Shown piece by piece: positions 10,724 to 46,335 of a stretch of DNA of 64,000 bases. Under the pieces are notes generated by a model. That model did not search any database and was not told where the DNA came from. It saw only the letters and a program-made list of their open reading frames with translations. The stretch comes from Clostridium massiliamazoniense (GTDB lineage Bacteria; Bacillota; Clostridia; Clostridiales; Clostridiaceae). The translations under genes were made by a program, and so were the position numbers. The stretch spans positions 1,883,501 through 1,947,500 of the forward strand of contig NZ_LN879468.1 in assembly GCF_001403635.1 (NCBI RefSeq). The letters run 5' to 3'. The number at the start of each line of letters is the position of its first letter. The first letter of the stretch is position 1.

Positions 10724-10749
10724 ATGTTCTTCACCTCACTTCTCTTAGC

Positions 10750-20760: not shown

Positions 20761-20776
20761 TTAATATAAATAACAA

Positions 20777-20812
20777 GGGGATGTATCAAAATTACAGATA
20801 CATCCCTTTTTT
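20777..20812 (+). terminator. Terminator after the CofE-like gene
   Basis: GGGATGTATC and GATACATCCC stem followed by seven Ts. It uses the same stem sequence found after the hairpin repeats. Confidence 0.85.
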
Positions 20813-20825
20813 TAAGCCCTATATA

Positions 20826-21449
20826 TTATTCTAATATTTCTTTTTTATAATTATTTTTTAACTCTAAATAATAATTTGCTTGTGTTAAATTTACATAAGG
20901 TATAATCCATATATAAGCTAATCCAAAGGTTATAATTCCTAATAAATACCATAATACAAAACTAATATCCAATACAAAGTACTCAAACTTATGACCTTTC
21001 ATCATTGCCCAACTTTCTTTTAAAACTTCTATTACTCCTTTATTATTATCATCAGCCAAAATATATGGTGCCATAGATAAACCATAAGCTATTATAATAC
21101 CTGGAATTATTAATAATACCATTCCTATAACTGTTAAAAGTGATATTAAAATATATAAACCTAAAGTTTTTAAATAAATATTAAATCCTGAAAATAAATT
21201 TGTAAACTTAGGATTATATTTATTAGCTACATTAATTAAAAATCTACATAATCCAATTGAGAATGCTCCACTGGTAAGTATAATAAAAATATTATAACCT
21301 GTATAAACTGCAGTATCAGGATATTTTATATTTAGAAAACTTTCTAATCCAGATAATAAAATAAAAAATAAAGTTACTCCTATACATACCCATAAATTAT
21401 TATTAAGTTGAATCTTTGCCCTTGATTTCAACTCTCTTCGTGATACCAT
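20826..21449 (-). CDS. DUF975 family membrane protein
   Basis: 207 residues. N-terminal VSRRELKSRAKIQL, typical of DUF975, precedes about five or six membrane helices, with GLSMAPYILADD and ESWAMMKGHKFEYFVLDISF as family-type motifs. Function unknown in the family. Monogenic; ends 14 bp from the terminator of the convergent CofE-like gene. The nearly 300 bp upstream (21450-21747) contain no recognisable gene and separate it from the tail cassette. Confidence 0.8.
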   Translation of the reverse strand: MVSRRELKSRAKIQLNNNLWVCIGVTLFFILLSGLESFLNIKYPDTAVYTGYNIFIILTSGAFSIGLCRFLINVANKYNPKFTNLFSGFNIYLKTLGLYILISLLTVIGMVLLIIPGIIIAYGLSMAPYILADDNNKGVIEVLKESWAMMKGHKFEYFVLDISFVLWYLLGIITFGLAYIWIIPYVNLTQANYYLELKNNYKKEILE

Positions 21450-21747
21450 AAAATCAAACCCCTTATTAATTATTATTTTTAATTGTTAATTATAATATAT
21501 AATATAGTAATAAATAACTCAATAAATTTCGTTCGACTTTTTCTGACAATACATAACCTCTATGTCTTAAAAAAGCATAATCTAATATAAACTATTCTAT
21601 TAATCCTAAATTTGATACTATACTTTTTTAATCATTTATTTTTAATTTCTACTTTTACTAAGTATCCTGTATTATTGGGACTTTCTTTAATAATATTTAG
21701 GTATTAACTTTATTTCTTTATTTCTATATTTTTTAATATTATTTTCT

Positions 21748-22227
21748 CTATTTTTTTAACTTTTTTTTTATATTTTGTGGTGATTCTCCATATAAATTCG
21801 AAATTTTTTTATAAGTCATATCACTTTTGTATCTTAATGTAATGAGCTTTTTACTTTTCTCATCTAAATTTCTTATAATATCATAAAACATCAAATTTTC
21901 ATCAATTGTTTCTACTTGTAAGTTATTTTTCTGTAATTCCTTAAATATATTGTTTTTAACATAATAATTACTTCTTCTCCACATAAATCTTTTTAGTGAA
22001 ATATTAATATAAGATCTTATTGCTTTATCATTTTCAAAATTATCTAAATTTAATTTTAAAATTAATTCACAAAAATAAGATTCTAATTCTTCATAGCTAT
22101 CACTTGCAGGAATAAAAAAAGAATATCCCTTTAATATATCCCTATACTTTGATAATAATTTTTGAAAACTATAATAATCATTATTTCTTATTAATTTAAT
22201 TAATCCTCTGATTGTATCATTTTTCAT
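21748..22227 (-). CDS. TcdR/UviA-like alternative sigma factor of the tail cassette
   Basis: 159 residues. Sigma region 2-like part at about 20-90 (FQKLLSKYRDILKGYSFF, ESYFCELILKLNLDNF, RSYINISLKRFMWRR) and a region 4 helix-turn-helix at about 115-157 (LDEKSKKLITLRYKSDMTYKKI, GESPQNIKKKLKK). Size and layout fit the group 5 sigma factors TcdR, BotR, TetR and UviA, which drive toxin and bacteriocin genes in clostridia. ATG after AAGGAAGGTGG. It is the last gene of the tail cassette and sits directly downstream of the cassette terminator, so it depends on read-through or its own promoter. Assignment to the UviA subgroup is by resemblance only. Confidence 0.7.
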   Translation of the reverse strand: MKNDTIRGLIKLIRNNDYYSFQKLLSKYRDILKGYSFFIPASDSYEELESYFCELILKLNLDNFENDKAIRSYINISLKRFMWRRSNYYVKNNIFKELQKNNLQVETIDENLMFYDIIRNLDEKSKKLITLRYKSDMTYKKISNLYGESPQNIKKKLKK

Positions 22228-22260
22228 AATATATCCACCTTCCTTTAAATTACTATAAAT

Positions 22261-22307
22261 AAAAATAAGCTATATCCATGATAAACTCATGAATATAGCT
22301 TATTTTT
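22261..22307 (-). terminator. Terminator between holin and sigma genes
   Basis: AATAAGCTATATTCATGA and TCATGGATATAGCTTATT form a nearly perfect long stem followed by a T run on the minus strand. It separates the lysis genes from the sigma gene. Confidence 0.85.
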
Positions 22308-22333
22308 CATTTTACATATTTTTCATGGATGCA

Positions 22334-22720
22334 TTATCCATTCGCTCTAGTTATTTTTATATCTTTCTCAATTTTATTTATTATAATTTTTGCAACATTA
22401 TTATCTACTACTATATCCATAGCTTCAAGTATTGCTACAATCACGTCATACTTTCTATTAACAAAATTTTCTTCATTAATATTATCATTTTTAAGAATAT
22501 TTATTGTTGTAGTTATCACATCTAATATTTTAGATACATCACTACTTGGATCTACTTTTTTAGATATATTATCACTTATACTCAATATTTCTTCAAATTT
22601 TTTATCTATATATTTTAAGGATGGAATATTTTTAGCTGTAGCACTTAAATTATATATTAAGAAAATTATACAAATAAAAATAATAAAAGTTATTAATAAA
22701 ATTGTCAAATAAAAATCCAT
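22334..22720 (-). CDS. Holin-like protein (LLH-type)
   Basis: 128 residues with one strongly hydrophobic N-terminal helix (about 3-26), then a mostly helical, charged cytoplasmic part. Layout and position after the lysozyme gene resemble phage holins of the LL-H type. It would allow the endolysin to reach the wall during release of tail particles. The lysozyme stop and this gene's ATG are 23 bp apart. Confidence 0.6.
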   Translation of the reverse strand: MDFYLTILLITFIIFICIIFLIYNLSATAKNIPSLKYIDKKFEEILSISDNISKKVDPSSDVSKILDVITTTINILKNDNINEENFVNRKYDVIVAILEAMDIVVDNNVAKIIINKIEKDIKITRANG

Positions 22721-22743
22721 AATTTCAATTTACCTCCAATCTA

Positions 22744-23625
22744 TTAATTATTTATATATTTCCTATATAAAAACATATTAGCTTCTGCTAATCTTCGTCT
22801 TTCTAAACCCCATAATTTTTTTCCATCACAATAACTCCACGCTGTAAAATCATTAATTATTATATTATTATCTAAACACTCAATAATATTTTGTAATAAA
22901 TCACTTCTCTTTAACGCATTTATCCCTAAATTATATGAAAAGTCAACAAGACTATCAAATTGATACTGTGTTAAATTTAAATCTTTAGTTATTAAAAATA
23001 CCTCTTTTGCTAAAGAATTTAATGTATTTTCCAAGTCACTCATAGCTTCTTCTAATGTTACTGGTGCAGGTTTAGTATTATATGTACAATCCCCAAAGCC
23101 AACTGTCCAATTTCCTCCTGCATCTTTATAAGGTACTGATGAAAAACCTTCCCAAGAAGCTGTAAACTTAATTAACTCATTTGATACTTGATTTATTTCT
23201 TTTGTTTCAATATTTGTATATTGTTTACTTATATATCCAATTTCAGGAGATGAAATTTTATACCATTCTCCTACTTCATCAATAATTTTAAATCTTTGAC
23301 CAAAATCTAAAACTGATATAATATCAGAATATACACTATCATTTTTTCTTACATTCAAACCAATTTCACTTATTATATATCCAAATCTGTCAGATATATT
23401 ACTTCTATTATTTTCACCATTTTCATTCTCATAAACTAAATCACCTAATAACTTCTTACAAGCATCATATAATTCTTCATTTAATGGTACAGTTTGAAGC
23501 CAAATCCCATAATTATTTTTAAAAAGAAAAATTTCTATATCATTAGGTATTAAATTTAATATTGATTTAATATCTATTTTCCCATTTTTCTCTTTTAATA
23601 ATTTAGTACAAATTATTCTATTCAT
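22744..23625 (-). CDS. Endolysin: SH3b plus GH24 phage lysozyme
   Basis: 293 residues. An N-terminal ~75-residue module of unknown function is followed by a bacterial SH3 domain (about 85-135; GLNVRKNDSVYS, WYKISSPEIGYI) and a T4-type lysozyme domain (about 148-290). The catalytic E-(8)-D-(5)-T triad is intact: Glu159, Asp168, Thr174. It cleaves the MurNAc-GlcNAc bond. No signal peptide, so export needs a holin. ATG after AGGAGGAAAAT. Placed between the tail fibre group and the holin, as in prophages and tailocins. Confidence 0.9.
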   Translation of the reverse strand: MNRIICTKLLKEKNGKIDIKSILNLIPNDIEIFLFKNNYGIWLQTVPLNEELYDACKKLLGDLVYENENGENNRSNISDRFGYIISEIGLNVRKNDSVYSDIISVLDFGQRFKIIDEVGEWYKISSPEIGYISKQYTNIETKEINQVSNELIKFTASWEGFSSVPYKDAGGNWTVGFGDCTYNTKPAPVTLEEAMSDLENTLNSLAKEVFLITKDLNLTQYQFDSLVDFSYNLGINALKRSDLLQNIIECLDNNIIINDFTAWSYCDGKKLWGLERRRLAEANMFLYRKYINN

Positions 23626-23648
23626 ATATTTTCCTCCTAATAAATTAA

Positions 23649-23674
23649 GAGCTATTGTAAATTTACAATAGCTC
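23649..23674. repeat. 26-bp perfect palindrome upstream of the endolysin gene
   Basis: GAGCTATTGTAAA followed by its exact complement TTTACAATAGCTC. It lies between the XkdX-like gene and the endolysin ribosome-binding site. As RNA it would form a 13-bp (no-loop) or about 11-bp hairpin without a T run, so it could be an operator or an RNA processing or attenuation element. Confidence 0.7.
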
Positions 23675-23696
23675 CTTTAATCTTTTTATTTACTAC

Positions 23697-23858
23697 TTAA
23701 AAAAACTTTCTAAATGCTTCAGTATTAGTTACTAAAGGTTCTCCTACAATTTCTTTATATTGTTCTGAAGTTAATAACCCTTCACTAACTGCTTCTACTA
23801 ATTGTTCTTTTGTAGCCATTCCCCATTGATAAAATTCTTTCCATGTTTCAAAATTCAT
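23697..23858 (-). CDS. XkdX-like small tail-module protein
   Basis: A 53-residue frame starting MNFETWKEFYQWGMATKEQL, with AGGAGGAAATAATT upstream. The pattern (aromatic N-terminus, then TKEQL...GLLTSEQYKEIVGE) matches the XkdX family, small proteins coded just after tail fibre genes in PBSX-like and other Firmicute prophages. Role unknown. In the same direction as the fibre and lysin genes, it adds to the evidence for a tail module. Confidence 0.75.
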   Translation of the reverse strand: MNFETWKEFYQWGMATKEQLVEAVSEGLLTSEQYKEIVGEPLVTNTEAFRKFF

Positions 23859-23885
23859 AATTATTTCCTCCTAAATAAATTCTTA

Positions 23886-24338
23886 TTATTTTTTTAATTC
23901 CATTGATGTTACAACTTGTCCAAGAGCTTGAATTTCCTTTAATAAAATGCTATTTTGCTCTTTTAATTTTTTATTTTCACTAGCCATATTATCTACTAAA
24001 TTACTTAATGCAGTTTGTTTATTATTACTTATTTGCGATTGTAATTGTAACTCACAAAGTACTCTTCCAATCATTTGTTCTTTAGTTAATGGTCTTGGTG
24101 GTTGTGCTGGTCTCTCTTTAAATACAAAATCTTTTATTGTTAATACTTGCCCTTCTATTGGATTACTTTTGAATAATATTAATTTTTTAAATTCCTTAAC
24201 TAAATTATTAAATAGTTCATCAGTTACTTCTATATACTTTAATTCATTATTAAATACTCCACCGCTTAAATCTCCATTAAAATCTGCTAATAATGATTTT
24301 ATTTCTAATTTACTATTGTATAAAACTAAATTTTTCAT
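23886..24338 (-). CDS. Small tail-fibre-associated protein with coiled coil
   Basis: 150 residues. The N-terminal half is beta-rich (NLVLYNSKLEIKSLLADFNG), followed by a Pro-rich hinge ERPAQPPRPLTKEQM and a C-terminal coiled coil (about 105-145; ASENKKLKEQNSILLKEI). Proteins of this build are common directly downstream of fibres in Firmicute phages and may be fibre chaperones or hinge proteins. This one is 20 bp downstream of the fibre gene. Function inferred from position. Confidence 0.6.
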   Translation of the reverse strand: MKNLVLYNSKLEIKSLLADFNGDLSGGVFNNELKYIEVTDELFNNLVKEFKKLILFKSNPIEGQVLTIKDFVFKERPAQPPRPLTKEQMIGRVLCELQLQSQISNNKQTALSNLVDNMASENKKLKEQNSILLKEIQALGQVVTSMELKK

Positions 24339-24358
24339 ATTGATTATATTCCTTTCTA

Positions 24359-26158
24359 TTAGTTTGTAATTATTAATCTAACATAAGTTTCGGTTAAGTA
24401 CTCACTAGAACTATCCATACTTATAGTAATTGATGAGTCATTTATCTTACTTATATAAAATGGTGTTGTTGTTGCTTGTACTTGAATAAAAGGAACATTA
24501 ACCCCCATAGCTGTCCTTAAGTGTGCATTAGCAAATGGAGATCCATTTAAATCAATAGTAATATCTTCTGTTACTGTTATTCCATTTTCATTAGTAAGAT
24601 TTACACCTATTACTCCAAAGAAACCACAATCAGTTGCTGTTGTTTCTGTTAATAAATACGGGCTACAATACCATCCATTTACAACATATTGTATTGGTTC
24701 TCCTGATGTTGTGTAAGAAGTTCCACTTTGATTTACTGCTGTATTCATAAAATTTTGACCTTTTACTCTTAAACATTCATTAATATCTATTGCTGTTGTT
24801 GATATAGTATCAACGACATCAATATTATTTGATTTTATATATCCAGTCACTACATTTCCATAAATATTAAGAGTATCTTCACCTGATGTAACTGGTGTAA
24901 ATCCTAAAAGGTTATTATTTGTATTTGTATTATATATAACAAATTCATTTGAACCATTTATCTCCATGCCAACTGTAGGATTTGTACTTGAATTTAATGC
25001 AAATTCTATATTATCATTTACAAGAAGTTCTCCATCTATAGTTACTTCATCGTTCATAGTTACATTAGATTGTATGTCTAAGTTTCCATATATATTTAAT
25101 GTATCTGTCCCTGATGTAACTGGCGTAAATCCTAAAATACTATTGTTAGTATTATTATTATATATAATAAATTCTTTTGAACTGTTTATTTCAATCCCAG
25201 CTGTAGGATTTGTACTAGAATTCAATGCAAATTCTAAATAATCACTTACAGTCACTGGATTGCTCATACTTACATCTCCATAAATATTTACACTACCAAT
25301 ACTTCCAGAAGTATTTGATGGCACCATACCTATTAAATCGTTTCCAGTATTCATATTAGCCATAAAAAATGTATTTCCATTAGTTCCTAATTCAATACCA
25401 TTTCCAGCATTATTCTCAAAGGTAATTTGGCCATTATTATTAGTCATATTCACATTATTAGAAAAAGTCCATTGTCCACTTATTGTCGGAGATGAACTCG
25501 CAGTTAAATAATTACCTGAATTATTTTTTATAGAATTTATTTCTGATAAAAGTTTGGTAAGGTCTGCATTACTATAATCAGCCTTTACAGATGCAAACCA
25601 ATTATCAAAAGCTGATGTGAATTGATTAAATAATCCAGTAGTATCTATTTGATCTATGACCCCAGCAACAAAGCCACATACTTCATTATTTGCTCTAGTA
25701 TCTAATATTGAACTTTGTGATATATTAATAGCATTAGGCATTATCTTTATTTCAGCTAATGATAACTGATATACATTATTTCCATTTTCAATAGCTGGTG
25801 CTACTGGATTTGCACTAAAAGTTCCTGTTAATATATAAGTTTTTATATTTCTTGTATTTAAGTTTAGTTCACATACTACTCTATCTATTCTTGAATAAGA
25901 TGTATTTGATGCTGCTAAAGTTAATGTTAAAGGCTCAATATTATTATAATAATATCCATTAATCCATGCCTTTCCTGAATTCACAATAACACTTAATCCT
26001 GTACCAGCTTGTACTTGTAAACTATTAGCTGGATTTGCAAATACGCCATTTCCTATAAAACTCGCAAAATATTCTGCCCAATCACTAGCATCATATACCC
26101 TATCGTAAGTTCCATTTTCTTCTTTTATAGCATTAAAAAAACTACTTAATTCTGCCAT
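24359..26158 (-). CDS. Tail fibre / receptor-binding protein
   Basis: 599 residues. The N-terminal ~200 residues (YDASDWAEYFASFIGNGVF, GKAWINGYYY, ILDTRANNEVCGFVAGVI) match the conserved baseplate-attachment part of Firmicute phage fibres. The middle (about 245-435) is Asn/Ser/Thr-rich, with three related beta repeats ending NIYG. The C-terminal ~140 residues are unique and probably bind the receptor. Begins 3 bp after the Tal stop, with AGGAGG upstream. In a tailocin this protein would set the target range. Confidence 0.8.
   Translation of the reverse strand: MAELSSFFNAIKEENGTYDRVYDASDWAEYFASFIGNGVFANPANSLQVQAGTGLSVIVNSGKAWINGYYYNNIEPLTLTLAASNTSYSRIDRVVCELNLNTRNIKTYILTGTFSANPVAPAIENGNNVYQLSLAEIKIMPNAINISQSSILDTRANNEVCGFVAGVIDQIDTTGLFNQFTSAFDNWFASVKADYSNADLTKLLSEINSIKNNSGNYLTASSSPTISGQWTFSNNVNMTNNNGQITFENNAGNGIELGTNGNTFFMANMNTGNDLIGMVPSNTSGSIGSVNIYGDVSMSNPVTVSDYLEFALNSSTNPTAGIEINSSKEFIIYNNNTNNSILGFTPVTSGTDTLNIYGNLDIQSNVTMNDEVTIDGELLVNDNIEFALNSSTNPTVGMEINGSNEFVIYNTNTNNNLLGFTPVTSGEDTLNIYGNVVTGYIKSNNIDVVDTISTTAIDINECLRVKGQNFMNTAVNQSGTSYTTSGEPIQYVVNGWYCSPYLLTETTATDCGFFGVIGVNLTNENGITVTEDITIDLNGSPFANAHLRTAMGVNVPFIQVQATTTPFYISKINDSSITISMDSSSEYLTETYVRLIITN
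24854..25234 (-). repeat. Internal repeats in the tail fibre
   Basis: Residues 309-359 and 385-435 are near-identical 51-residue units (FALNSSTNPT...NEF.IYN...LGFTPVTSG.DTLNIYGN) with a 76-residue period. A weaker third unit lies at about 246-294. Confidence 0.85.
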
Positions 26159-26160
26159 AT

Positions 26161-27336
26161 TTATAGCCTCCTCATATATACTGAATTTATTTTTTTAATT
26201 ATAGATGGTAAAGGGTACCCAAAAGTTATAACTATATTTAAGCCATTAACTGAATACTCTTCACTTACTGCAACAATTAAACTATTCATGTTTAAATCCC
26301 AATCCTTATTCAAGCAGGTAACAATATCTCCAACTTTAAAATCACTTCCATAAGTTAAATTAGATCTTATATTTAAGCTACCGGAAAAACTTTTAATTTC
26401 TTGACTTAAACTTAATACCTCATATCCTAAAGCTTCTGAAATTTGTCCAAAATTACTATTTGTTAAAGTTATCTTTTTGCCATTTATCTCTGGATTAGAA
26501 CAATCTATTGATGTTTCATATCTATTTAATCCCACAAAGCTACTATCTATGGGATATTCTATAATTGATTCTTTATTTTCTCCATTTGCATTGTTTTTAT
26601 TATCTATAGTTCCATAAACATATGCTGTATTTTTATAATTAACTGAACTTTCTATATAACTATTTGAAAGTATATTATTTAAATTTTCACTAAATATAAT
26701 AGGTGAGTCTGAAATCCCTATGGATTTATCCTCACCTTTAAAAACATTTACTATATAATTCTTTTGTTTTAAATTCATCAATATTTCTATTCCATAATAA
26801 TGAGCTTGACATATTGATGATATACTGTCTAAAAGAGAAGAATATTTTGTTATTGTATATGTTGTTTCCTCTAATAAACTTCCATTTTCTAAGATAGATA
26901 AATTAGGTATTATTCTGTTACTATCTTCTGGATTTATACACTGTTTTGATATAATTTCTTTAATAATATCAAATACTTTTCCACTTACTACATCTTTATC
27001 TATATTAGATATAATTCTTTGAGAAAACCAATTAAGTAAACTTACACCTTGTATTTGAAGAGTTTGAACTCCTTCATCATCTATTGATAAATTTACATAA
27101 GTTATAACAAAAGGTTCTAATAGATCTCCATCTTTTGATAAGCTACTTTTTGTTACTAAATTTCCAATTTTAAAAAGTGATAAATTTTTACTATTAAGAG
27201 GAATTGACAGTGTAAAGTTTCCTGGTTCATTTAACTGTTTAGTCCATTGTAATGATATTATATTATCTACAATTCCTAATGCATTAAAGTTCGTATCCCA
27301 TACTGTTAAAAAAAAGTTTTTTAAATTACACATCAT
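26161..27336 (-). CDS. Tail-associated protein (Tal, ReqiPepy6 Gp37-like)
   Basis: 391 residues. The N-terminus (FFLTVWDTNFNALGIVDNI, LNEPGNFTLSIPLN) is typical of the siphovirus Gp37-like/Tal hub proteins that cap the tail tube below Dit. It includes the usual GDLLEPFVITYVNL and C-terminal KVGDIVTC elements. No separate peptidase domain is visible. I chose the ATG at 27336 because it forms an ATGA overlap with the Dit stop codon and has GGGGGA upstream; a TTG at 27351 is possible but poorly spaced. Confidence 0.8.
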   Translation of the reverse strand: MMCNLKNFFLTVWDTNFNALGIVDNIISLQWTKQLNEPGNFTLSIPLNSKNLSLFKIGNLVTKSSLSKDGDLLEPFVITYVNLSIDDEGVQTLQIQGVSLLNWFSQRIISNIDKDVVSGKVFDIIKEIISKQCINPEDSNRIIPNLSILENGSLLEETTYTITKYSSLLDSISSICQAHYYGIEILMNLKQKNYIVNVFKGEDKSIGISDSPIIFSENLNNILSNSYIESSVNYKNTAYVYGTIDNKNNANGENKESIIEYPIDSSFVGLNRYETSIDCSNPEINGKKITLTNSNFGQISEALGYEVLSLSQEIKSFSGSLNIRSNLTYGSDFKVGDIVTCLNKDWDLNMNSLIVAVSEEYSVNGLNIVITFGYPLPSIIKKINSVYMRRL

Positions 27337-28199
27337 AGTACAATCCCCCAATATGACTCATAATACTCTATTTGAGCATCAAATCCATATTTATTCCCCT
27401 CATTACACTCATAAGTAAATTCATTTAAACCTGGATTTAACATAAGCCAAGTTGAATTTAATATATCAACTGTTCCTATTACATTTTCTCCATTTAAAAG
27501 GACAGACTTATTACCAAATTCTGAATTTATCACCAAAGTATCTTCTGCTTTCATTTTTATATCTATGCTAAAGAATTGACCTGTTGTTAAATTAGTTATT
27601 TTTATTCCACTAATTTCCTTAAGTGCTGTTAAGGTTATAATCATAGGGACTTCGACGTTACATTGATTATAAATACTACTTATTGTATTATTTACTCTTT
27701 CAGCAAAAATCATTCCTTGCTCTTCAGGGATAGATAGTTTAAATTTAAATTCATCTATATAGGAATTTGAAGTAACGACAGTAGGATTTAAATTATGCCA
27801 TAGTGTCCCTGGACATAAAATATTTATCATAAACTTTACAAACATACTATTATTATTATCATATCCTATTGCCCATTTTACTAATCCATCACATTTCCCT
27901 TTTATTTGATATTTATTATTCACTACTAATTGAACTTCACTAAATGGGCTAGTTATATTAAGCAACTTTTCTCTCTTGCTAGCCATATCTAAATCAGAAT
28001 TTGCAAAAATATATCCTATAATAGAAATACTCCTACTATTTACATTAGTAGAAGTAATATATTCACCAATTTGTTTTATTGTTTTACTTGTTGAATGTTG
28101 TGTATCACAGTTATCTGTAACTATTTGATTTAAAATATAATTTATATTATCAAATTCTATAAATTCATTAGTATTAAGATTTTTCAATAAAACCTCCAA
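27333..28199 (-). CDS. Distal tail protein (Dit, Sipho_tail family)
   Basis: 288 residues. N-terminal belt part (LLKNLNTNEFIEFDNINYIL; SKREKLLNITSPFSEVQL) and a galectin-like C-terminal half (LNPGLNEFTYECNEG) match Dit/Sipho_tail proteins, hexameric hubs joining the tube to fibres. The annotated start is TTG at 28199 after AGGAGGTG; a second TTG at 28187 with TGGAGG at 5 nt is equally plausible. Between tape measure and Tal, as expected for a siphovirus tail. Confidence 0.8.
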   Translation of the reverse strand: MEVLLKNLNTNEFIEFDNINYILNQIVTDNCDTQHSTSKTIKQIGEYITSTNVNSRSISIIGYIFANSDLDMASKREKLLNITSPFSEVQLVVNNKYQIKGKCDGLVKWAIGYDNNNSMFVKFMINILCPGTLWHNLNPTVVTSNSYIDEFKFKLSIPEEQGMIFAERVNNTISSIYNQCNVEVPMIITLTALKEISGIKITNLTTGQFFSIDIKMKAEDTLVINSEFGNKSVLLNGENVIGTVDILNSTWLMLNPGLNEFTYECNEGNKYGFDAQIEYYESYWGIVL

Positions 28200-28212
28200 A
28201 ACCTCTCACCTC

Positions 28213-30291
28213 CTAATAAAAACCATTTGCCATATTACGGCTTGTTTGTTCTAACTGTCTTCTAACTTCAAATGGATTTAATGCTTTAGGACTATTAATA
28301 ACCACATTAACTCCCTTATCGCTACTTCCTCCAAATATTGCTGAAGAACCTTTCCTTAATCTACTATGATCCCAAGTAGATTCTAGTGTATTATTAATAG
28401 TAGCAACTGCAAACAGAGCATCACCAATGCCAATATCACGGTCACCTGAGCCTAGCATATTCGCCTCTATAGTTTTTTCATTAAGTAAATTTTTTGCTCC
28501 ATCTGATCTTTCTGTGATTCCACTAAGAACTCTACCTATATAGCTTGAAACTCTATCAAATGTATTTTCTATTCCAGATACCCATGATCCTACATCATTT
28601 GATATAGAATTCAACCCACTAGAGAAGCTACTAACCCAGCTTGGTGAATTTGATGATATAATACCTGTTATTCCAGTTGCTAATCCTCCAATTATACCTA
28701 ATGCTGAATTTTTAAATGATCCAATAAGATTAGAAATACTTCCTGTACTTCCATTAACACTTCTTACTGAATTATTTCCAGTATCATTAACTATTCCATT
28801 TATAGCACTTCCGTTAGAACTAATTGATGCCTTTATACTATTTAATCCTCTTTTTATTGTTCCTAAAGTTGTTGACATAGACCTTGAAGATTCTCTAACT
28901 ATATTCTTACCAAGTCCATTTGCAATTTCATAAATAGTCTTAGTTCTACTTCTCCAATCAGAAATTATATCATTAAGTTTAGATTTAGTATTTCTATTAA
29001 ACAAATCTAATGCACCTGAATTAGCTGAATTTAGGTTTTTTCCACCTTTGGAAACTATTGAATCTAAAGTATTTTCCATTGATTTAAAGATTAAAGGTAT
29101 TTCACTTAATCCTTTACTAGTACTTTTTTCTAAATCTGAATAAAAACTATTATAATTACCTAAAATATTTTTATTAGACTTGGCAGTATTATTAAATAAA
29201 TCTTTATTTAAAATATTATTGTCTGATAGTACTTTTCCATTTCCCTTTTCTATAATAGCTACAATACCATTTGATTGTACTTCTAAATCTTTACCTAACT
29301 TTGAATAAAAGCTATTATAATTCTTTAAAAGTTCCTTATTGAATTTTACATTATTATTAAGAATCCCTTTATTTAAAAGGTTATTTCCTTGTAATATTTC
29401 ATTGTTTCCTTTGTTTATAATAGCTATAACTCCACCTGACTGAGTTTTTAGATCTTTATCTAATTTTGAATAAAAACTATTATTAGTCTTTATAAATTCT
29501 TTATTAAACTTTGTAGCATTATTAAGAATATTCTTATTTAAAAGAACATATCCTTCTAATATTTTTCCATTTTGACTATTTGCATTAATAGCAAATTTAT
29601 TAAATTGAACCTCTGAATCTTTATTAAATTTCGCTAATGCAACTTCAACTGATGATAAACTTTTTATTATTGGAGTACTAATTGTCTCACCTATTTTAGG
29701 AGCCACTCCTTTTGCATAAAGATAAACCTTAAGTAAAGTACCATCAAAAGTATTAGCAAATTCCCTTGTTGCTAACATTGCTGAATCAAGAGAATTTACA
29801 GTTTCATCTATTGTCTCGCTTAATTTACCTCCTCCGCCACTTGAAGCATTAGGAATCTCATTATCTTCATCATCTTCATCATCTTCACCACCAGGATTAC
29901 CTCCACCAGAGCAATCACAATGACATTCACAATGACATTCTATTTTTTTATTATCTTCATCATCACTTTCCTTACCTAATAGCTTAGATAAGAATCTTTT
30001 TCCTCCCACGGAAGCAGCAATGATTGTAGATATTCCCCCTATAACTGCTACTAATTCACTTAGTGATGTTATTATACTTCCATAAGGATCTTTGCTTTCT
30101 GCATGTAACAACCACTCTTCTACTTTATTAGTCGTTACTATTTGATTCGCTAAAGCATCCACATTATTATTAATATTTTTTAAATAATTACACATTGTTG
30201 GAAGGAAAGTATACGTAAGGTATTGTATATCACCAATGTTACTACTTATATCATTAATTATCTCATCAACTACTCCTACCTCATCATTCAT
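28213..30291 (-). CDS. Tape measure protein with Cys/His cluster
   Basis: 692 residues; ATG after AGGAGGTG. Order: N-terminal helical part, a hydrophobic stretch at about 78-97, an Asp/Glu/Gly-rich linker holding CHCECHCDC (119-127), three roughly 55-residue repeats (about 218-390), long amphipathic helices, a Gly/Ser-rich hydrophobic segment (about 540-560) and a C-terminal KALNPFEVRRQLEQTSRN typical of tape measures. Using the usual 1.5 angstrom per residue, the tail would be about 100 nm. Position before Dit supports the call. The metal-binding-like cluster is unusual for the family. Confidence 0.75.
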   Translation of the reverse strand: MNDEVGVVDEIINDISSNIGDIQYLTYTFLPTMCNYLKNINNNVDALANQIVTTNKVEEWLLHAESKDPYGSIITSLSELVAVIGGISTIIAASVGGKRFLSKLLGKESDDEDNKKIECHCECHCDCSGGGNPGGEDDEDDEDNEIPNASSGGGGKLSETIDETVNSLDSAMLATREFANTFDGTLLKVYLYAKGVAPKIGETISTPIIKSLSSVEVALAKFNKDSEVQFNKFAINANSQNGKILEGYVLLNKNILNNATKFNKEFIKTNNSFYSKLDKDLKTQSGGVIAIINKGNNEILQGNNLLNKGILNNNVKFNKELLKNYNSFYSKLGKDLEVQSNGIVAIIEKGNGKVLSDNNILNKDLFNNTAKSNKNILGNYNSFYSDLEKSTSKGLSEIPLIFKSMENTLDSIVSKGGKNLNSANSGALDLFNRNTKSKLNDIISDWRSRTKTIYEIANGLGKNIVRESSRSMSTTLGTIKRGLNSIKASISSNGSAINGIVNDTGNNSVRSVNGSTGSISNLIGSFKNSALGIIGGLATGITGIISSNSPSWVSSFSSGLNSISNDVGSWVSGIENTFDRVSSYIGRVLSGITERSDGAKNLLNEKTIEANMLGSGDRDIGIGDALFAVATINNTLESTWDHSRLRKGSSAIFGGSSDKGVNVVINSPKALNPFEVRRQLEQTSRNMANGFY
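29120..29640 (-). repeat. 55-residue repeats in the tape measure gene
   Basis: Units contain NSFYSKL.KDL..QS.G..AII.KGN and NNLLNK..LNN...FNKE. Two are well conserved, with a degenerate first and last copy. Variation in copy number would change tail length in 55-residue steps. Confidence 0.75.
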
Positions 30292-30356
30292 TTCTACACC
30301 TCCTATAAAAAAAGAAATTACTTATTCTGTAATCTCTTTCTACTATATTACCTACT

Positions 30357-31007
30357 TTAAATCAAAGACATAAGTCCTTGTACAATTATAAAAACTTTAA
30401 TCATACCTAATAAAACTACTAATATTAATACAATATATAATAGTTTAACTGCTATATTTACCATAAAATAGATAATTTTATTATATCCACTTTGATTAAA
30501 CTTAATCTTTTCATATCTTATTTTAGTATTATAATAAAATACCCACCCTTTTAACAATTCTATAACTTTATCCTCATCAAGGTAATTCTTATATGACCAA
30601 TAATTAGAATTATCACTCCAAACTATTTTAATTTTACTAGTATTATCTAAGTTTTTACCTCTTAACTTTTTTAATAAAGCACCTAATTTAAAAGCATCTT
30701 TCCTCTTCAAAATTTTTACTTCTATTATAACCTTATCTTTATTATTATCAAATTTTTTACATACAAATTCATCAAAATTCTCTAAAATCCATTTAGGTTT
30801 TGAATTTTTTATTTTATTATTTATTTTTTTTATTTCTTCATCAAGCATCTTATTTAGTAAAATCTCTTCTTGATCTTTAATTTTATTAGATTCTAATCTT
30901 GTATTTTTTTCCTTTATTTCCGCTATTGTTTTATCTATTTGATTTACTTCTTTATTATCCACCAACTTAAACTCCAATCCTATATAATTTAATATTTTTA
31001 TTAACAT
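30357..31007 (-). CDS. Unknown membrane-anchored protein in the tail cassette
   Basis: 216 residues, not recognised. It has an N-terminal charged coiled coil (about 20-75), a Lys-rich alpha/beta middle (KVIIEVKILKRKDAFKLGALLKKLRG), and one or two hydrophobic helices at the C-terminus (about 175-214) that would anchor it in the membrane, facing the cytoplasm. It lies between the UviB-like gene and the tape measure, where most siphoviruses have nothing. It could act in immunity, lysis timing or tail assembly; nothing in the sequence decides. Confidence 0.5.
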   Translation of the reverse strand: MLIKILNYIGLEFKLVDNKEVNQIDKTIAEIKEKNTRLESNKIKDQEEILLNKMLDEEIKKINNKIKNSKPKWILENFDEFVCKKFDNNKDKVIIEVKILKRKDAFKLGALLKKLRGKNLDNTSKIKIVWSDNSNYWSYKNYLDEDKVIELLKGWVFYYNTKIRYEKIKFNQSGYNKIIYFMVNIAVKLLYIVLILVVLLGMIKVFIIVQGLMSLI

Positions 31008-31192
31008 TATTATATATAGGAAATATTTTTAAAAGTAAGATACGTTGACTATTATTTACCATATTACTTGTTTATATTGTAATTAAATAATTTTACTTTA
31101 TTTTTCTTATGATAATAATATTATTAAACTCTGCAATCGAATAAATAATTAAATAGTATTAAATTAAATATTAAAATTGTTAAATATTTAAA
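31008..31192. other. AT-rich gap inside the tail cassette
   Basis: About 185 bp without a frame or hairpin terminator. May hold a promoter for the tape measure half of the cassette; none is convincing. Confidence 0.3.
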
Positions 31193-31393
31193 TCACTTTA
31201 AATTAACTAATTTGTTTTTTATCTCTTCTAACTCTTCTTTTATTACAGGTAAAGTTGATGTAAGCTTGTCTATTATATTTTGATAATTTTCTTCTCTTAT
31301 GCTATTTTGTTTTAGTACATATATTAATAAGTAACAAAATAATATAGCAAATATACCTTGGCTTATTATCATTTTTAAAATAGCTGAATCCAT
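31193..31393 (-). CDS. UviB/BhlA-type holin-like bacteriocin protein
   Basis: 66 residues: [28 protein letters not shown] forms one N-terminal membrane helix, followed by a charged tail ending [12 protein letters not shown]-like coiled coil. This is the build of the BhlA/UviB family, found with clostridial bacteriocin BCN5 (uviAB on pIP404) and in Bacillus prophages, where it is thought to permeabilise the membrane. ATG after AGGGGGAATG. Unusual place: between the tail chaperones and the tape measure rather than by the endolysin. Confidence 0.75.
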
Positions 31394-31443
31394 ATCATTC
31401 CCCCTTGCATAGTTTATTAATCATATTAAGATAAATTTTAACC

Positions 31444-31766
31444 TTAATTCACCTGCTCTTGCTTAACAACTTTTCTTAAAGCATCATAATCTGGATCAGC
31501 TTGCATTAGATCTCTTAACTCTTTTAAGAATTTCCTACCATCTTCGCTTTGTTTTAATAAATATATCCAACTATCACGTTTGTATACACAAAATAAATAG
31601 TATGGTAGTTCTGATATTTCTGTAAAATTTAGTCCAGTATAATCCTTAATACTTTTAATATTACTAGTTATTACAGAATACTTTTCTTCTAATTCCCAAT
31701 CTTCCACATCAAAATATTTCTTCATTATTAATGAACCTATTTCACCTTCTGGAATTGGGATTCTTA
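31444..31766 (-). CDS. Tail assembly chaperone, frameshift extension (gpT-like)
   Basis: This frame is open from the shift site at 31767 through CTAAGAATCCCAATTCC to the stop at 31444. An internal ATG at 31725 would give 93 residues alone but has no good ribosome-binding site. Reached by -1 slippage from the gene at 31764-32051, it yields a fusion of about 201 residues. The C-terminal part (LPYYLFCVYKRDSWIYLLKQ) is the region that binds tape measure in gpGT-type chaperones. Confidence 0.75.
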
Positions 31767-32051
31767 GTTTTTTTCTATATCTGCTACTCCATTAACTATA
31801 AATTTCATAAGCTCTGCAATTTGTTTCATTGATAATGTTGCTTCTATTTCTTCAACAGTAAATTTTATATTTTCTCTATTTGTATTTAAGTATTCTGTAA
31901 TTAGCTCTATTACTTCTTCTAAATTATTCTCTTTTATTTTTCCAAACTTAATTGCTATCTTATATGAAATTGGTGGAATGTTATATGCCACATTTTTTAT
32001 TGTTATAATTGAATCCTTACAAAAATTATCTAAATTTATTGAATTACTCAT
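31764..32051 (-). CDS. Tail assembly chaperone, short form (gpG-like)
   Basis: 95 residues: NSINLDNFCKDSIITIKNV... through TVEEIEATLSMKQIAELM to DIEKN. Size, position after the tail tube gene and the frameshift at its 3' end identify it as the gpG-like chaperone that coats tape measure before tube polymerisation. ATG with AAGAGGTAAT upstream. No head genes accompany it. Confidence 0.8.
   Translation of the reverse strand: MSNSINLDNFCKDSIITIKNVAYNIPPISYKIAIKFGKIKENNLEEVIELITEYLNTNRENIKFTVEEIEATLSMKQIAELMKFIVNGVADIEKN
31767..31773 (-). promoter_or_regulatory. Programmed -1 frameshift site A AAA AAC
   Basis: The zero frame reads GAA AAA AAC TAA, giving the canonical heptamer A AAA AAC directly before the stop. 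After -1 slippage the frame CTA AGA ATC stays open for 106 codons. A Shine-Dalgarno-like GGAG lies about 12 nt upstream, a known stimulator in bacteria. Confidence 0.8.
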
Positions 32052-32075
32052 ATTAATTACCTCTTCTTTCTTTTA

Positions 32076-32110
32076 GTAAAAAAGACACTATTTCTTAAAT
32101 AGTGTCTTTA
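32076..32110 (-). terminator. Terminator/attenuator after the tail tube gene
   Basis: AAAGACACTATTT and AAATAGTGTCTTT, 13-bp stem with a 3-nt loop, then a T run. It lies 9 bp after the tube gene and 25 bp before the chaperone gene, so it would keep tube expression above the rest. Confidence 0.8.
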
Positions 32111-32118
32111 AAAATATT

Positions 32119-32736
32119 TTAATTTGCTGGTGTTGAAGAAACTTCTTCTCTGAATTCAGCTAAGAATTTATTGAAGTACTGAATTCCTGTTATTTCTGCA
32201 TTTATAGATGTTGCTTTATCTGTAAAGTCCATGCTGAATCCTTGTCCACCTTGACCTACCATTGTAAATCTTATTTTATTTCCATCTGGTTTTGTGTAAA
32301 CAAATCTTAATATTACAACCTCTAAGTCTCCACTTCCTGTGAATACAACTCTTTTCTCAGAATTACTTTCTATTATTTCTGCATTACTTAAACTAGCTAT
32401 GTTATCTACATTCCATGTTAATATACCTGTTTGTGCTGTAAAATCTTCTTGTGTTGTAAATGTTCTAACTAATTGATTGTATTGATTATAAACACTAGTT
32501 TGTTTTGGTTTATAAGTTATTTTAAATCCTCCTGTGCAGTATCCTACATTATATTCTGCCACCTCAATTTCAGAGTCATCTGGTAGAGCTGTTAAATCAC
32601 CTACTGGCATAATGTATACTTCTCCACCTCCTAATAATATTTCACCCTTTCCTGAATTAGCTAAAGAGCTACCAAATGGTTGTCCATTTGCTAAAATTCC
32701 TGCGGCTGTTGATGATCCTTTTGCTACTGTACTCAT
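32119..32736 (-). CDS. Major tail tube protein
   Basis: 205 residues, beta-rich. The Gly/Ser-rich N-terminal arm is followed by GEVYIMPVGDLTALPDDSEI, EYNVGYCTGGFKITYKPK and FTTQEDFTAQTGILTW, the tail tube fold of siphovirus-type tails. There is one tube gene and no sheath gene in the cassette, so the tail is non-contractile. Strong AAGGAGGAA ribosome-binding site and a downstream attenuator fit its need in hundreds of copies. Confidence 0.8.
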   Translation of the reverse strand: MSTVAKGSSTAAGILANGQPFGSSLANSGKGEILLGGGEVYIMPVGDLTALPDDSEIEVAEYNVGYCTGGFKITYKPKQTSVYNQYNQLVRTFTTQEDFTAQTGILTWNVDNIASLSNAEIIESNSEKRVVFTGSGDLEVVILRFVYTKPDGNKIRFTMVGQGGQGFSMDFTDKATSINAEITGIQYFNKFLAEFREEVSSTPAN

Positions 32737-32893
32737 ATTAAATTTCCTCCTTGGTATTTTCTAATTTCTTTAGAAAATTAATTTTTATTTGCTAATGATT
32801 AATTAGCTTGATATTATCTTAACTCAAGACTTTATTCATATTCTGTCTTTCTTTTGTTTACTTTTTGTTCTCAAATTGTTTTCTATAATCCAA

Positions 32894-33310
32894 CTAACAA
32901 TTTATAATTGCATCTATCTTTTTTAATGACCTCATATATATTCCTCTTGCAGCTCCATAGCTCATATTTAATCTCTCTGCAATTAGATACCAAGTATATG
33001 GAAAATCATCAAAATACCTTAACTCTATAATTTTTCTTTCATCTTCACTTAGAATTTTTATTACATTAAATATCTTGCTTTGTTTTTTTTCTAATATACT
33101 TTTTTTCTTTTCTAAAGCTTCTATCTTTAAATTATTATTAATCACTATGTTTTCTACTATACTTTTATTTCCTCCAGCTGTAGATAAGTTATCCTTATAT
33201 TCAACAGCTTTTAATCCATCTTCTTCTTTAAAAATTTCTATCTCTATTTCTATATTTTTAATTTTAATTTGGTTCTTTTTGTATTCTTTTAATAATTCAC
33301 TTGCTTTCAT
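32894..33310 (-). CDS. ArpU/sigma-region-4-like regulator of the tail cassette
   Basis: 138 residues: long N-terminal coiled coil (about 1-85; MKASELLKEYKKNQIKIKN, EALEKKKSILEKKQ) and a C-terminal sigma-70 region 4-like helix-turn-helix (about 90-135; LSEDERKIIELRYFDDFPYTW, AERLNMSYGAARGIYMRSLKKI). This is the build of ArpU and related late-gene regulators in Firmicute phages. It is the first gene of the cassette with AGAGGAGAG upstream, and probably switches on the tail genes. The 157 bp after it may hold the tail promoter. Confidence 0.75.
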   Translation of the reverse strand: MKASELLKEYKKNQIKIKNIEIEIEIFKEEDGLKAVEYKDNLSTAGGNKSIVENIVINNNLKIEALEKKKSILEKKQSKIFNVIKILSEDERKIIELRYFDDFPYTWYLIAERLNMSYGAARGIYMRSLKKIDAIINC

Positions 33311-33589
33311 AATATCTCTCCTCTTTTGATGTTAAAATAAAAAACTCTCTATATACTTAAAGACTTACTCACAACCTTTTTTAAACCTAAAAAATAATTT
33401 TTCATATATCAATATTAATTTAAATTCCTTTTTATTAAACTACTTCAAAATCTTAAAAAAATTAAATAATATGTTAATTATATTAATTTTATCCAATCAC
33501 AGTTGACAACCAATCTTTAACAATTAAAAATATATTGTGTTTTAAATTATTAATGCTACGTAAAAATAAAATAGTTAGGGGGAACTTTT
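33311..33589. other. Divergent promoter region of tail cassette and yitT
   Basis: About 280 bp. On the minus strand TTTAAA-(16)-TCTTTA upstream of the ArpU-like gene faintly resembles promoters read by TcdR/UviA-type sigma factors (TTTACA/CTCTTTA); this is weak. No integrase or att-like repeat is visible. Confidence 0.3.
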
Positions 33590-34432
33590 ATGAAAAGACT
33601 TAAAGAGTATGGAATAATTACTTTAGGAGTATTATTAGTTGTTATAGCTTTTGAATTTTTCTTTTTTCCAAATAATATAGCAAGTGGTGGTGTTTCTGGT
33701 TTAGCTCTTGTTTTAAATAATTTACTTGGTCTTGAACCTGGAATAATCATGTTTATTTGCAATGCAATATTATTTGCCATAGCATTTATATTTATAGGAG
33801 GAAATTTTGGAGTTAAAAGTATCTATGCTGCTTTTAGCTTATCTGGAATCCTTTCTATTATTGAGAAAATTGGTGCTCCCAATGCTGTAACTAACAATTT
33901 AATATTAGCCTCAATATTCGGAAGTGCACTTTTAGCCCTTGGTTCTTCAATTATCTTTTCTCAAGGTGCATCAACAGGTGGTACAAGTATTACAGCTAAA
34001 CTTTTAAATAAATATGCTCACATAGACATAGGAAAGGGAATGTTTATTTCTGATTCAGTAGTTATTCTTTTAGCTATGTATACTTTTGGTATAGAACTTG
34101 GTTTGTTTGGACTTTTAAGTGTTTACTTAACAGGAAACTTTATTGATAAATTCATAAATGGAGCTAAATCATGCAAAAAACTACTTATATTCACTAAGAA
34201 AAAAGACTTAGTTGTTGATTATATAACAAAGGATATTGACAGAGGATGTACTATTTTAAAAGGGGAAGGTGGATATACTAAAGAAGAAAATGACGTTATA
34301 TTAACTATTTTAGATAGAAGACAATTTATAATGTTAAAAAAATTTATGAAGGAAAATGACCCAAATGCCTTTATAACAGTTAGCACAACTAATGAGGTTC
34401 TAGGGGAAGGTTTCGCTAGTATAATAGAATAA
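33590..34432 (+). CDS. YitT family membrane protein (DUF161/DUF2179)
   Basis: 280 residues: five or six N-terminal membrane helices with FFFPNNIASGGVSGLALVLN and FSQGASTGGTSITAKLLNKY motifs typical of YitT, then a cytoplasmic DUF2179 domain (about 195-280; ITKDIDRGCTILKGEGGYT, FITVSTTNEVLGEGF). ATG after AGGGGGAAC. Transport function likely but substrate unknown. Monogenic with its own terminator. Confidence 0.9.
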   Translation: MKRLKEYGIITLGVLLVVIAFEFFFFPNNIASGGVSGLALVLNNLLGLEPGIIMFICNAILFAIAFIFIGGNFGVKSIYAAFSLSGILSIIEKIGAPNAVTNNLILASIFGSALLALGSSIIFSQGASTGGTSITAKLLNKYAHIDIGKGMFISDSVVILLAMYTFGIELGLFGLLSVYLTGNFIDKFINGAKSCKKLLIFTKKKDLVVDYITKDIDRGCTILKGEGGYTKEENDVILTILDRRQFIMLKKFMKENDPNAFITVSTTNEVLGEGFASIIE

Positions 34433-34450
34433 GTTTCACTAAAATAAGTT

Positions 34451-34492
34451 GGAGGGTGTATAATTTATTTATAGACTATACACCCTCTTTTA
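34451..34492. terminator. Terminator shared by yitT and LRR genes
   Basis: GAGGGTGTATA and TATACACCCTC stem followed by TTTT. It overlaps the 3' end of the convergent LRR gene. Confidence 0.85.
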
Positions 34493-45870: not shown

Positions 45871-46335
45871 ATGTTTGAAGATTTAAAAAGTGCGGGAAAA
45901 CCTTTAAAAGAACTAACAGCAGGTCCCAACAGTGCATTTAAAGAACTTTCTTCATTGAAAGATATTTCTCTTCCATTAAAAGAACTCGGTAAAATGGAAT
46001 CATTCAATGAATTATCAAGTTTAAAAGAAGGTTTTGCTCCATTAAAAGACTTAAAGGGACCAGATCCTCATGGCCCTAAACATGATTCATCAAATAATGA
46101 TGATAATAAAAAAGACAAAGACAATAAAGATGATAGCAAAAAGGATGATGGTAAAAAAGATAAAGACAATAAAGATGACAATAAGAAAGATGACAATAAG
46201 AAAGACAAAGACGAAAAAGATGACAACAAGAAAGATGATGATAAAAAAGATAAAGACAATAAAGACGACCACAAAAAAGATGATAATAAAAAAGATAAAG
46301 ACAATAAAGATGATAAACACAAAAAAGATAAATAA
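45871..46335 (+). CDS. Asp/Lys-rich repeat protein
   Basis: 154 residues; ATG after AACAGGAGG. The N-terminal half has repeated LKEL/FKELSSLK-type units (about 10-65). The C-terminal half (about 75-154) is almost only Lys, Asp and Asn in tandem KKDDNKKDKDNKDD units: highly charged, disordered, and about neutral in net charge. No membrane or signal part. Coded between the two 59-residue paralogs, likely one transcript with the second. Perhaps a spore surface or cation-binding polymer; unknown. Confidence 0.75.
   Translation: MFEDLKSAGKPLKELTAGPNSAFKELSSLKDISLPLKELGKMESFNELSSLKEGFAPLKDLKGPDPHGPKHDSSNNDDNKKDKDNKDDSKKDDGKKDKDNKDDNKKDDNKKDKDEKDDNKKDDDKKDKDNKDDHKKDDNKKDKDNKDDKHKKDK

What the first reader, a model, noticed from the sequence alone, without database searches (positions are those of the whole stretch)
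21748..33310. Complete tail-only cassette with lysis genes: candidate F-type tailocin
In one direction on the minus strand: ArpU-like regulator, tail tube, frameshifted chaperones, UviB-like protein, unknown membrane protein, tape measure, Dit, Tal, fibre, fibre-associated protein, XkdX, GH24 endolysin, holin, sigma factor. No terminase, portal, capsid, head connector, integrase, repressor or replication gene, and no sheath. All frames are intact, so this is not a random prophage remnant. By analogy with F-type pyocins and Listeria monocins it should make non-contractile tail particles that kill related strains, about 100 nm long from the tape measure length. I do not recall such a clostridial element with a TcdR/UviA-type sigma gene at its end.
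Basis: partly seen in the sequence, partly recalled or inferred. Interest (0 to 1): 0.88.

Follow-up and report, generated by a model that had tools for sequence, protein, structure and literature searches.

The report
Headless phage tail in a Clostridium
A Clostridium-type chromosome carries the tail and lysis genes of a tailed virus with the head genes missing, so the cell may make free phage tails, of a kind that in other bacteria kills competing strains; we found no earlier report of such a flexible-tail (F-type) case in clostridia, and nothing has been tested in the laboratory.

Summary
The observation largely holds. Fifteen minus-strand genes (21748-33310) form a non-contractile tail and lysis module: ArpU/RinA-type activator, tube, chaperones with a conserved -1 frameshift site, UviB-type holin, membrane protein, tape measure, Dit, Tal, receptor-binding fibre, XkdX, GH24 endolysin, TM protein, sigma factor. 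The best relative, an IMG/VR prophage (L068), has nine of these in the same order, but with terminase, portal, capsid, connectors and a probable tail terminator between its ArpU-like gene and its tube gene. ORFs of 14 reference phage loci match the 64-kb window only inside the block, none of them a head gene. Tube relatives lie near head, packaging or neck genes in 34 of 34 genome places and 27 of 28 viral loci: the headless form is so far a singleton. Corrections: the sigma gene ends at least 11 residues short of 7 of 7 relatives and has SPQ for the group's SRQ; the block has no usable TTTACA element and no LexA box, so neither SOS induction nor sigma control is supported by sequence. Best reading: an F-type tailocin from a siphophage late region joined by uviAB-like bacteriocin genes. 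Particles and killing are untested. New variant of a known kind.

The parts
32894..33310 (-). ArpU/RinA-type late-gene activator (138 aa), first gene of the block
   Evidence: phrog_36 2e-20; RinA TIGR01636 33.7 bits over cut-off 31.9; 38% over 61 aa to the ArpU-like gene before the terminase genes of L068
32119..32736 (-). tail tube protein (205 aa)
   Evidence: 59% to L068 tube; AlphaFold model pLDDT 74; 6 of the 9 PDB matches with E up to 0.001 are titled tail tube or major tail proteins, best 6.5e-6
31764..32051 (-). tail assembly chaperone G (95 aa)
   Evidence: 33% over 94 aa to L068 gene at the same place; no family match
31767..31773 (-). -1 ribosomal frameshift heptamer A AAA AAC directly before the G stop codon
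   Evidence: position checked; same heptamer and read-through in L068
31444..31725 (-). chaperone T part of the G-T fusion (93-aa ORF)
   Evidence: 49% over 71 aa to L068; matches in most reference loci
31193..31393 (-). UviB/BhlA-family holin-like protein (66 aa)
   Evidence: PF10960 5.2e-17, phrog_2429 2.5e-18; 48-60% to UviB genes beside 4 of 7 UviA-like sigma genes
30357..31007 (-). unknown membrane protein (216 aa)
   Evidence: no accepted family; 1 weak match in 206 genomes
28213..30291 (-). tape measure protein (692 aa); only its C-terminal part resembles relatives; three 55-residue repeats
   Evidence: phrog_167 7.5e-8; C-terminal matches to Dulem virus 30 and L068, weak; no match in the phage collection; repeats
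27333..28199 (-). distal tail protein Dit
   Evidence: PF22768 4.6e-16; 40% to L068, 37% to Dulem virus 30
26161..27351 (-). tail-associated protein Tal (ReqiPepy6 Gp37-like)
   Evidence: PF14594 2.1e-59; 30% to L068
24359..26158 (-). receptor-binding fibre: N-terminal anchor about 1-185 conserved, repeats, C-terminal tip without match
   Evidence: 51% over 164 N-terminal residues to L068; anchor model resembles phage baseplate and receptor-binding proteins; tip no match in phages
23886..24338 (-). fibre-associated coiled-coil-like protein (150 aa)
   Evidence: 34% over 112 aa to L068 gene at the same place
23697..23858 (-). XkdX
   Evidence: PF09693 2.2e-13; 49% to L068
22744..23625 (-). GH24 endolysin with SH3 domain
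   Evidence: PF00959 3.5e-25, PF08239 1.6e-10; 50% to L068, 51% to Dulem virus 30
22334..22720 (-). TM protein (128 aa), candidate holin by position (L068 has a 127-aa TM protein there)
   Evidence: position only; sequence comparison E=0.41
22261..22307 (-). terminator-like hairpin between the 128-aa gene and the sigma gene
   Evidence: 6 terminator-like sites found in the region, 1.8 expected
21748..22227 (-). UviA/TcdR-like sigma factor (159 aa), C-terminus at least 11 residues shorter than relatives
   Evidence: sigma region 4 about 1e-4, below cut-off; TIGR03209 BotR 0.0017, far below cut-off; 7 relatives in 6 of 206 genomes, 27-37%; end compared

Best explanation
The block encodes an F-type (flexible, non-contractile) tailocin derived from a temperate siphophage of the L068 / Dulem virus 30 lineage. 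In L068 the late region runs ArpU-like activator, terminase, portal, capsid, connectors, probable tail terminator, tube, chaperones, tape measure, Dit, Tal, fibre, XkdX, endolysin; here the stretch from terminase to tail terminator is absent, so the activator stands directly before the tube gene (shown by comparison). Proposed working: the ArpU/RinA protein switches the operon on under an unknown signal; the tube polymerises on Dit-Tal-fibre around the tape measure with the G/GT chaperones, giving tails of roughly 100 nm; holin(s) and GH24 lysin burst the producer; the fibre's unmatched tip binds a surface receptor of related strains and the tail kills by membrane depolarisation (all inferred). 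A uviB gene inside the block and a uviA-like sigma gene at its end suggest a join with a clostridial bacteriocin regulatory pair, but whether the sigma gene still works is doubtful.
For: Nine block genes lie in the same order in the full prophage L068, with its own tape measure in its place; same order of the shared tail genes in Dulem virus 30 and in L051. No head, neck or packaging protein found in the window. Tube fold supported; the fibre anchor resembles receptor-binding proteins (weak, E 0.003-0.02, best hit a phi812 baseplate protein at 1.1e-4), so the PHROG label 'head protein' for it is misleading. Programmed frameshift site and read-through conserved. 14 of 15 ORFs show no interruption. 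UviB 48-60% identical to UviB of clostridial uviAB pairs. Headless tail and lysis genes are what the papers describe for F-type tailocins (PMC10811719, PMC7076858; passages).
Against: No tail terminator or completion gene, so a defined tail length is not assured. The sigma gene is short at its C-terminus, which fits slow decay. The headless form is a singleton in all that was searched, so maintenance by selection is not shown. No LexA box and no shared promoter motif found. No immunity gene recognised. The tape measure's N-terminal part has no match, so its fit to this tail is assumed. Nothing about killing can be read from sequence.
Confidence: 0.6

Rival explanations
1. Recently decapitated prophage remnant: a deletion removed the head genes and the rest has not yet decayed; no useful particle is made.
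For: Singleton; no tail terminator match; sigma gene short at its end.
Against: 14 of 15 ORFs without interruption and the frameshift site kept. No integrase, repressor or replication gene in the block either. Between chaperone T and the tape measure the window has the UviB gene and the membrane protein, where L068 has only a 35-base gap; that points to rearrangement, not one deletion.
Confidence: 0.27
2. Tail-supply element: tails made here are joined to heads of a co-resident phage, or serve a satellite.
For: The tail genes are there from the tube down.
Against: No packaging, integration or interference gene recognised in the block; the proteins that join tail to head are missing.
Confidence: 0.04
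3. Lysis-and-tail block used for self-lysis or release of cellular proteins, not for killing.
For: Two holin candidates and an endolysin; several uviA-like genes lie near genes that look like peptidoglycan hydrolases (read by eye).
Against: Does not explain retention of the tail genes and a modular receptor-binding fibre.
Confidence: 0.06

Closest known systems
Prophage IMGVR_UViG_2534682204_000004 (L068) and Dulem virus 30 (PP511706)
   Same: Same tail and lysis genes in the same order (tube 59% and 41%, Dit 40% and 37%, endolysin 50% and 51%)
   Different: They carry terminase, portal, capsid and connectors; no gene between chaperone T and tape measure in L068, and no sigma gene recognised after its lysis genes (the locus ends about 200 bases later)
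Listeria monocin (ftb cluster, F-type tailocin)
   Same: Headless non-contractile tail cluster ending in a holin-lysin cassette, in a Gram-positive (PMC7076858, passages)
   Different: 18 genes, weakly related to phage A118, SOS-induced (same passages); sequence relation to this block not tested gene by gene; only a weak tube-fold match to solved monocin (rank 14, E 0.007)
Rhizoviticin (F-type tailocin, Allorhizobium)
   Same: Tail and lysis genes without head genes; chimeric origin of regulators and tail (PMC10811719, passages)
   Different: Gram-negative; early phage genes retained
F-type pyocins of Pseudomonas
   Same: Flexible headless tails (named in PMC10811719; lambda kinship from a cited title)
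   Different: Different tail lineage and regulators (recalled)
Diffocin and the R-type tailocins of solvent clostridia
   Same: Clostridial phage-tail particles (PMC10538166 passages; PMC6088184 listing only)
   Different: Contractile; those of solvent clostridia keep capsid genes; this block has no sheath
uviAB of C. perfringens bacteriocin BCN5
   Same: A UviB-family gene and a UviA-like sigma gene together (PMC4031146, passages)
   Different: There one operon linked to bacteriocin BCN5; here about 9 kb apart with tail genes between them

Membership tests
F-type tailocin | Non-contractile tail genes (tube, tape measure, Dit/Tal tip, fibre), no sheath | tested here: met
   no sheath family among the 15 proteins
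F-type tailocin | No head, portal or terminase genes | tested here: met
   whole 64-kb window; the genome outside the window is not held
F-type tailocin | Own lysis cassette | tested here: met
   GH24 and BhlA/UviB; second holin by position only
F-type tailocin | Headless tail particles are made | not testable with these tools
   needs electron microscopy
F-type tailocin | Kills related strains | not testable with these tools
   needs killing assays
F-type tailocin | Headless block kept in several strains of the lineage | tested here: inconclusive
   34 of 34 genome places and 27 of 28 viral loci with a related tube have head, packaging or neck genes, against the reading; but none is closer than 59% and no genome of this species is held
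SOS-induced tailocin | LexA box (GAACN4GTTC) before the block | tested here: not met
   none in the block with up to 1 mismatch; indirect SOS control not excluded
TcdR/UviA group of sigma factors | SRQ in region 4.2 (marker from PMC4031146) | tested here: not met
   window SPQ; 6 of 7 relatives SRQ, one SKQ
TcdR/UviA group of sigma factors | TTTACA -35 element at target or own promoters | tested here: not met
   in the block's minus strand 12 occurrences, 11 inside genes, one inside a hairpin at 23661; upstream of sigma or uviB in 5 of 7 relatives (chance expectation not computed)
TcdR/UviA group of sigma factors | Association with a UviB gene | tested here: met
   UviB in the same block, about 9 kb away; adjacent in 4 of 7 relatives
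Intact siphoprophage | Head, packaging, integration and replication genes | tested here: not met
   head and packaging; integration and replication: none among the block's 15 genes
ArpU/RinA late-gene activators | Curated profile score | tested here: met
   RinA 33.7 bits, cut-off 31.9; phrog_36 2e-20

The most novel reading that the evidence does not exclude
A clostridial bacteriocin regulatory pair (uviA-like sigma and uviB) has captured a headless siphophage tail, making an F-type tailocin run as a bacteriocin regulon by a sigma factor whose altered recognition end has gone with a changed promoter, rather than by the SOS and repressor circuit of other tailocins.
Probability: 0.2. Interest if true: 0.75.

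Novelty: new variant of a known kind. Interest (0 to 1): 0.55.

Why it matters
Few F-type tailocins are documented: a 2024 paper names only F-pyocin and monocin besides its own (PMC10811719, passages), and the 2023 survey of solvent clostridia reports R-type tailocins that keep their capsid genes and no prophage it could class as a siphovirus (PMC10538166, passages). If it works, this shows that clostridia too have turned a siphophage tail into a stand-alone particle, with a full phage relative at hand (L068) that shows which genes were dropped. It also makes testable whether sigma factors of the bacteriocin/toxin-regulator kind can control such particles.

Tried and rejected
Species identity: no whole genome is held; in the 206 genomes of the family of G001 the best Ddh match is 75% and the best YitT match 72%, so no close relative seems to be among them. 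Empty-site test: none of the 18 loci around these two host genes (up to about 1.5 kb on each side) holds any other of the ten window flank genes, so the insertion site could not be compared. Attachment sites: no convincing flanking repeat; the only pair at both ends (21706, 33232) is 71% alike in AT-rich DNA. Shared promoter: pair search no better than shuffles. Sigma-70-type promoter-like sites at chance level (102 found, 105.9 expected). Rfam: none at gathering score in 20000-35000. Leader DNA ArpU-tube against L068 ArpU-terminase: no similarity beyond shuffles. The PHROG label 'head protein' for the fibre rejected by position and fold. First viral scans with single proteins found nothing. 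Tape measure and fibre tip: no match in 50,697 phage records; sigma: no match in plasmids, 3 short region-4 matches in phages. Most of the fibre model is of low confidence (mean pLDDT 50.8). The fibre scan kept 80 of 127 loci; only nine rows beside the window (one of them L004) entered the fibre alignment A8, and lack of head matches in the fibre-scan loci was not counted, because the head queries are too distant. The primary monocin paper is not held.
Full report
What is there. The ORF table shows fifteen contiguous minus-strand genes from 33310 down to 21748, between a YitT-family gene (33590-34432, plus strand) and a small membrane-protein gene (20826-21449, minus strand), beyond which lies a CofE-like gene (host names read by eye). 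Profile searches name most of the block: an ArpU/RinA-type activator, a tube protein, a BhlA/UviB-family protein, a tape measure, Dit, a Gp37-type Tal, a fibre, XkdX, a GH24 endolysin with an SH3 domain, and a protein with sigma region 4 (below Pfam's cut-offs). Five have no useful family match: the two chaperones, the 216-aa membrane protein, the 150-aa protein and the 128-aa TM protein. G+C is 25.8% in the block, 29.1% to its left and 27.3% to its right.

Where it comes from. Tube relatives among 50,697 phage records are only two (E up to 0.01): Dulem virus 30 (41%) and a faecal phage clone (29%); among 72,556 plasmids, one record of Paraclostridium bifermentans (48%). All three are phages with head genes: by annotation in Dulem virus 30 and the plasmid, read by eye in the clone. 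A profile scan of IMG/VR gave 28 loci. The best, L068, from a 30,247-base prophage contig, has tube 59%, chaperones 33% and 49%, Dit 40%, Tal 30%, fibre anchor 51%, 150-aa protein 34%, XkdX 49% and endolysin 50%, nine genes in the window's order, with its own tape measure (869 aa; weakly similar in the C-terminal part) between them. In L068 the ArpU-like gene (38% over 61 aa to the window's) is followed by terS, terL, portal, minor capsid, scaffold, capsid, two connectors, an HK97-gp10-type protein and a probable tail terminator, then the tube (terS, connectors and terminator named by position). In the window the ArpU gene is followed directly by the tube. So the block looks like this phage's late region without the stretch from terS to the terminator. 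The change was not one clean deletion, however: between chaperone T and tape measure the window has the UviB gene and the membrane protein, where L068 has 35 bases, and most of the tape measure has no match in phages.

Is the head really missing? Every ORF of at least 60 aa from 14 reference phage loci was searched against the whole 64-kb window (E up to 1e-3); matches fall only in the block, and none is a head, neck or packaging gene. The host genome beyond the window is not held.

How common is the headless form? In the 206 genomes held for the family of G001 (the genome of L004, Eubacterium multiforme), 17 have a tube relative, at 19 places. Eighteen regions were fetched and L004 was at hand; all 19 have at least one head, packaging or neck protein nearby, seven of them only a distant terminase match. 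The order (225 genomes, largely the same) added two places, the class (391 genomes drawn from more) thirteen. All fifteen have a terminase or portal match, five of them only a distant terminase match. So 34 of 34 places, 12 of them on a terminase match alone. Of the 28 viral loci 27 have such proteins (L085, a short contig, only the neck protein); L094 begins at the tube. Some viral loci may come from the same genomes. The window is the only headless case in all that was searched. That makes it new, but it also means that selection for the headless state could not be shown.

Signs that the tail still works. The fourteen genes other than sigma show no interruption, and those with a counterpart in L068 are of comparable length; the 216-aa gene has no comparator. 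The first chaperone ends at A AAA AAC TAA; after a -1 slip at this heptamer (31767-31773) the frame reads through LRIPIPEGEIGSLI into the second chaperone, and L068 has the same heptamer and LKIPIPDGEVGKLI. The AlphaFold model of the tube (mean pLDDT 74) has nine PDB matches with E up to 0.001; six are titled tail tube or major tail proteins. The fibre's first 185 residues or so are shared with relatives, then follow repeats and a tip with no match among phages. Only about residues 30-165 of the fibre model are reliable; its best PDB match is a phi812 baseplate protein (1.1e-4), followed by SPP1 gp22 and the lactococcal p2 receptor-binding protein (0.003-0.02). PHROG's label 'head protein' for this family should therefore not be taken as a head gene.

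Regulation. The ArpU/RinA gene passes the curated RinA cut-off and is the most likely switch (inference). The sigma gene has seven relatives in 6 of 206 genomes at E up to 1e-6 (27-37%). In four of the seven a UviB gene lies next door, 48-60% identical to the window's UviB, and in several, genes that look like peptidoglycan hydrolases are near (read by eye); no tail cluster was seen around the seven by eye (the regions are 3.5 to 20 kb). But six of the seven have the SRQ motif that PMC4031146 proposes as the group's marker, one has SKQ and the window SPQ; all seven run at least 19 residues past that motif, the window only 8, ending in runs of A. TTTACA, the group's -35 element in that paper, lies upstream of the sigma or uviB gene in five of seven relatives (chance not computed, and the DNA is AT-rich); in the window block it occurs outside genes only once, inside a hairpin before the endolysin gene. 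Two of seven relatives have a LexA-type box before the sigma gene; the block has none even with one mismatch. A terminator-like hairpin stands between the 128-aa gene and the sigma gene. So the sigma gene may be decaying, may act on other sites, or may not serve the block at all.

Literature. Eight searches - tailocin with Clostridium, F-type and monocin terms (9), UviA/UviB/TcdR (40), phage tail-like terms (43), F-type pyocin terms (81), F-type tailocin or Bacillota from 2023 (89), UviB with tail and prophage (99), noncontractile tailocin with Firmicutes (100) - listed no paper whose title or abstract opening reports an F-type tailocin in a Clostridium; most listings were cut to the best 12 to 25. 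PMC10811719 (passages) names F-pyocin and monocin as the other F-types; PMC10538166 (passages) reports R-type tailocins with capsid genes in solvent clostridia and no prophage classed as siphovirus. The library holds open-licence papers only, so absence there is not proof.

Judgement. Works like an F-type tailocin: about 0.6. Membership: anatomy met; particle and killing untested. The main rival is a decapitated prophage on its way out, about 0.27. The 100-nm length is the recalled rule of about 0.15 nm per tape-measure residue times 692, and assumes that the tube stops there although no terminator gene was found.

Noticed in passing
28213-30291: The tape measure has a Cys/His-rich stretch (CHCECHCDC) and an acidic run in its N-terminal third, and no match in the phage collection; unusual for a tape measure.
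   Followed up: partly
30357-31007: 216-aa protein with a C-terminal membrane segment and no family; one weak match in 206 genomes. Could be an immunity or lysis-control protein.
   Followed up: partly
L178 4729-4740 and L180 4424-4435: GAACN4GTTC (LexA-type) boxes directly before UviA-like sigma genes in two clostridial genomes, a few bases after a TTTACA motif: possible SOS-inducible, self-controlled sigma genes.
   Followed up: partly
L179 551-13724: Several similar secreted-protein-like genes and peptidoglycan-binding-like genes around a UviB gene and two sigma-like genes (read by eye); may be a bacteriolysin regulon.
   Followed up: no
49493-50461: 322-aa protein that looks like two Bro-N (phage antirepressor-type) domains in tandem, alone among host genes (read by eye, no family search).
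   Followed up: no
8567-12900: Two adjacent large genes of YhgE/Pip ('phage infection protein') appearance (read by eye).
   Followed up: no
45871-46335: 154-aa protein made mostly of Lys/Asp repeats.
   Followed up: no
62577-63998: Urease alpha-subunit-like gene running off the window end (read by eye).
   Followed up: no
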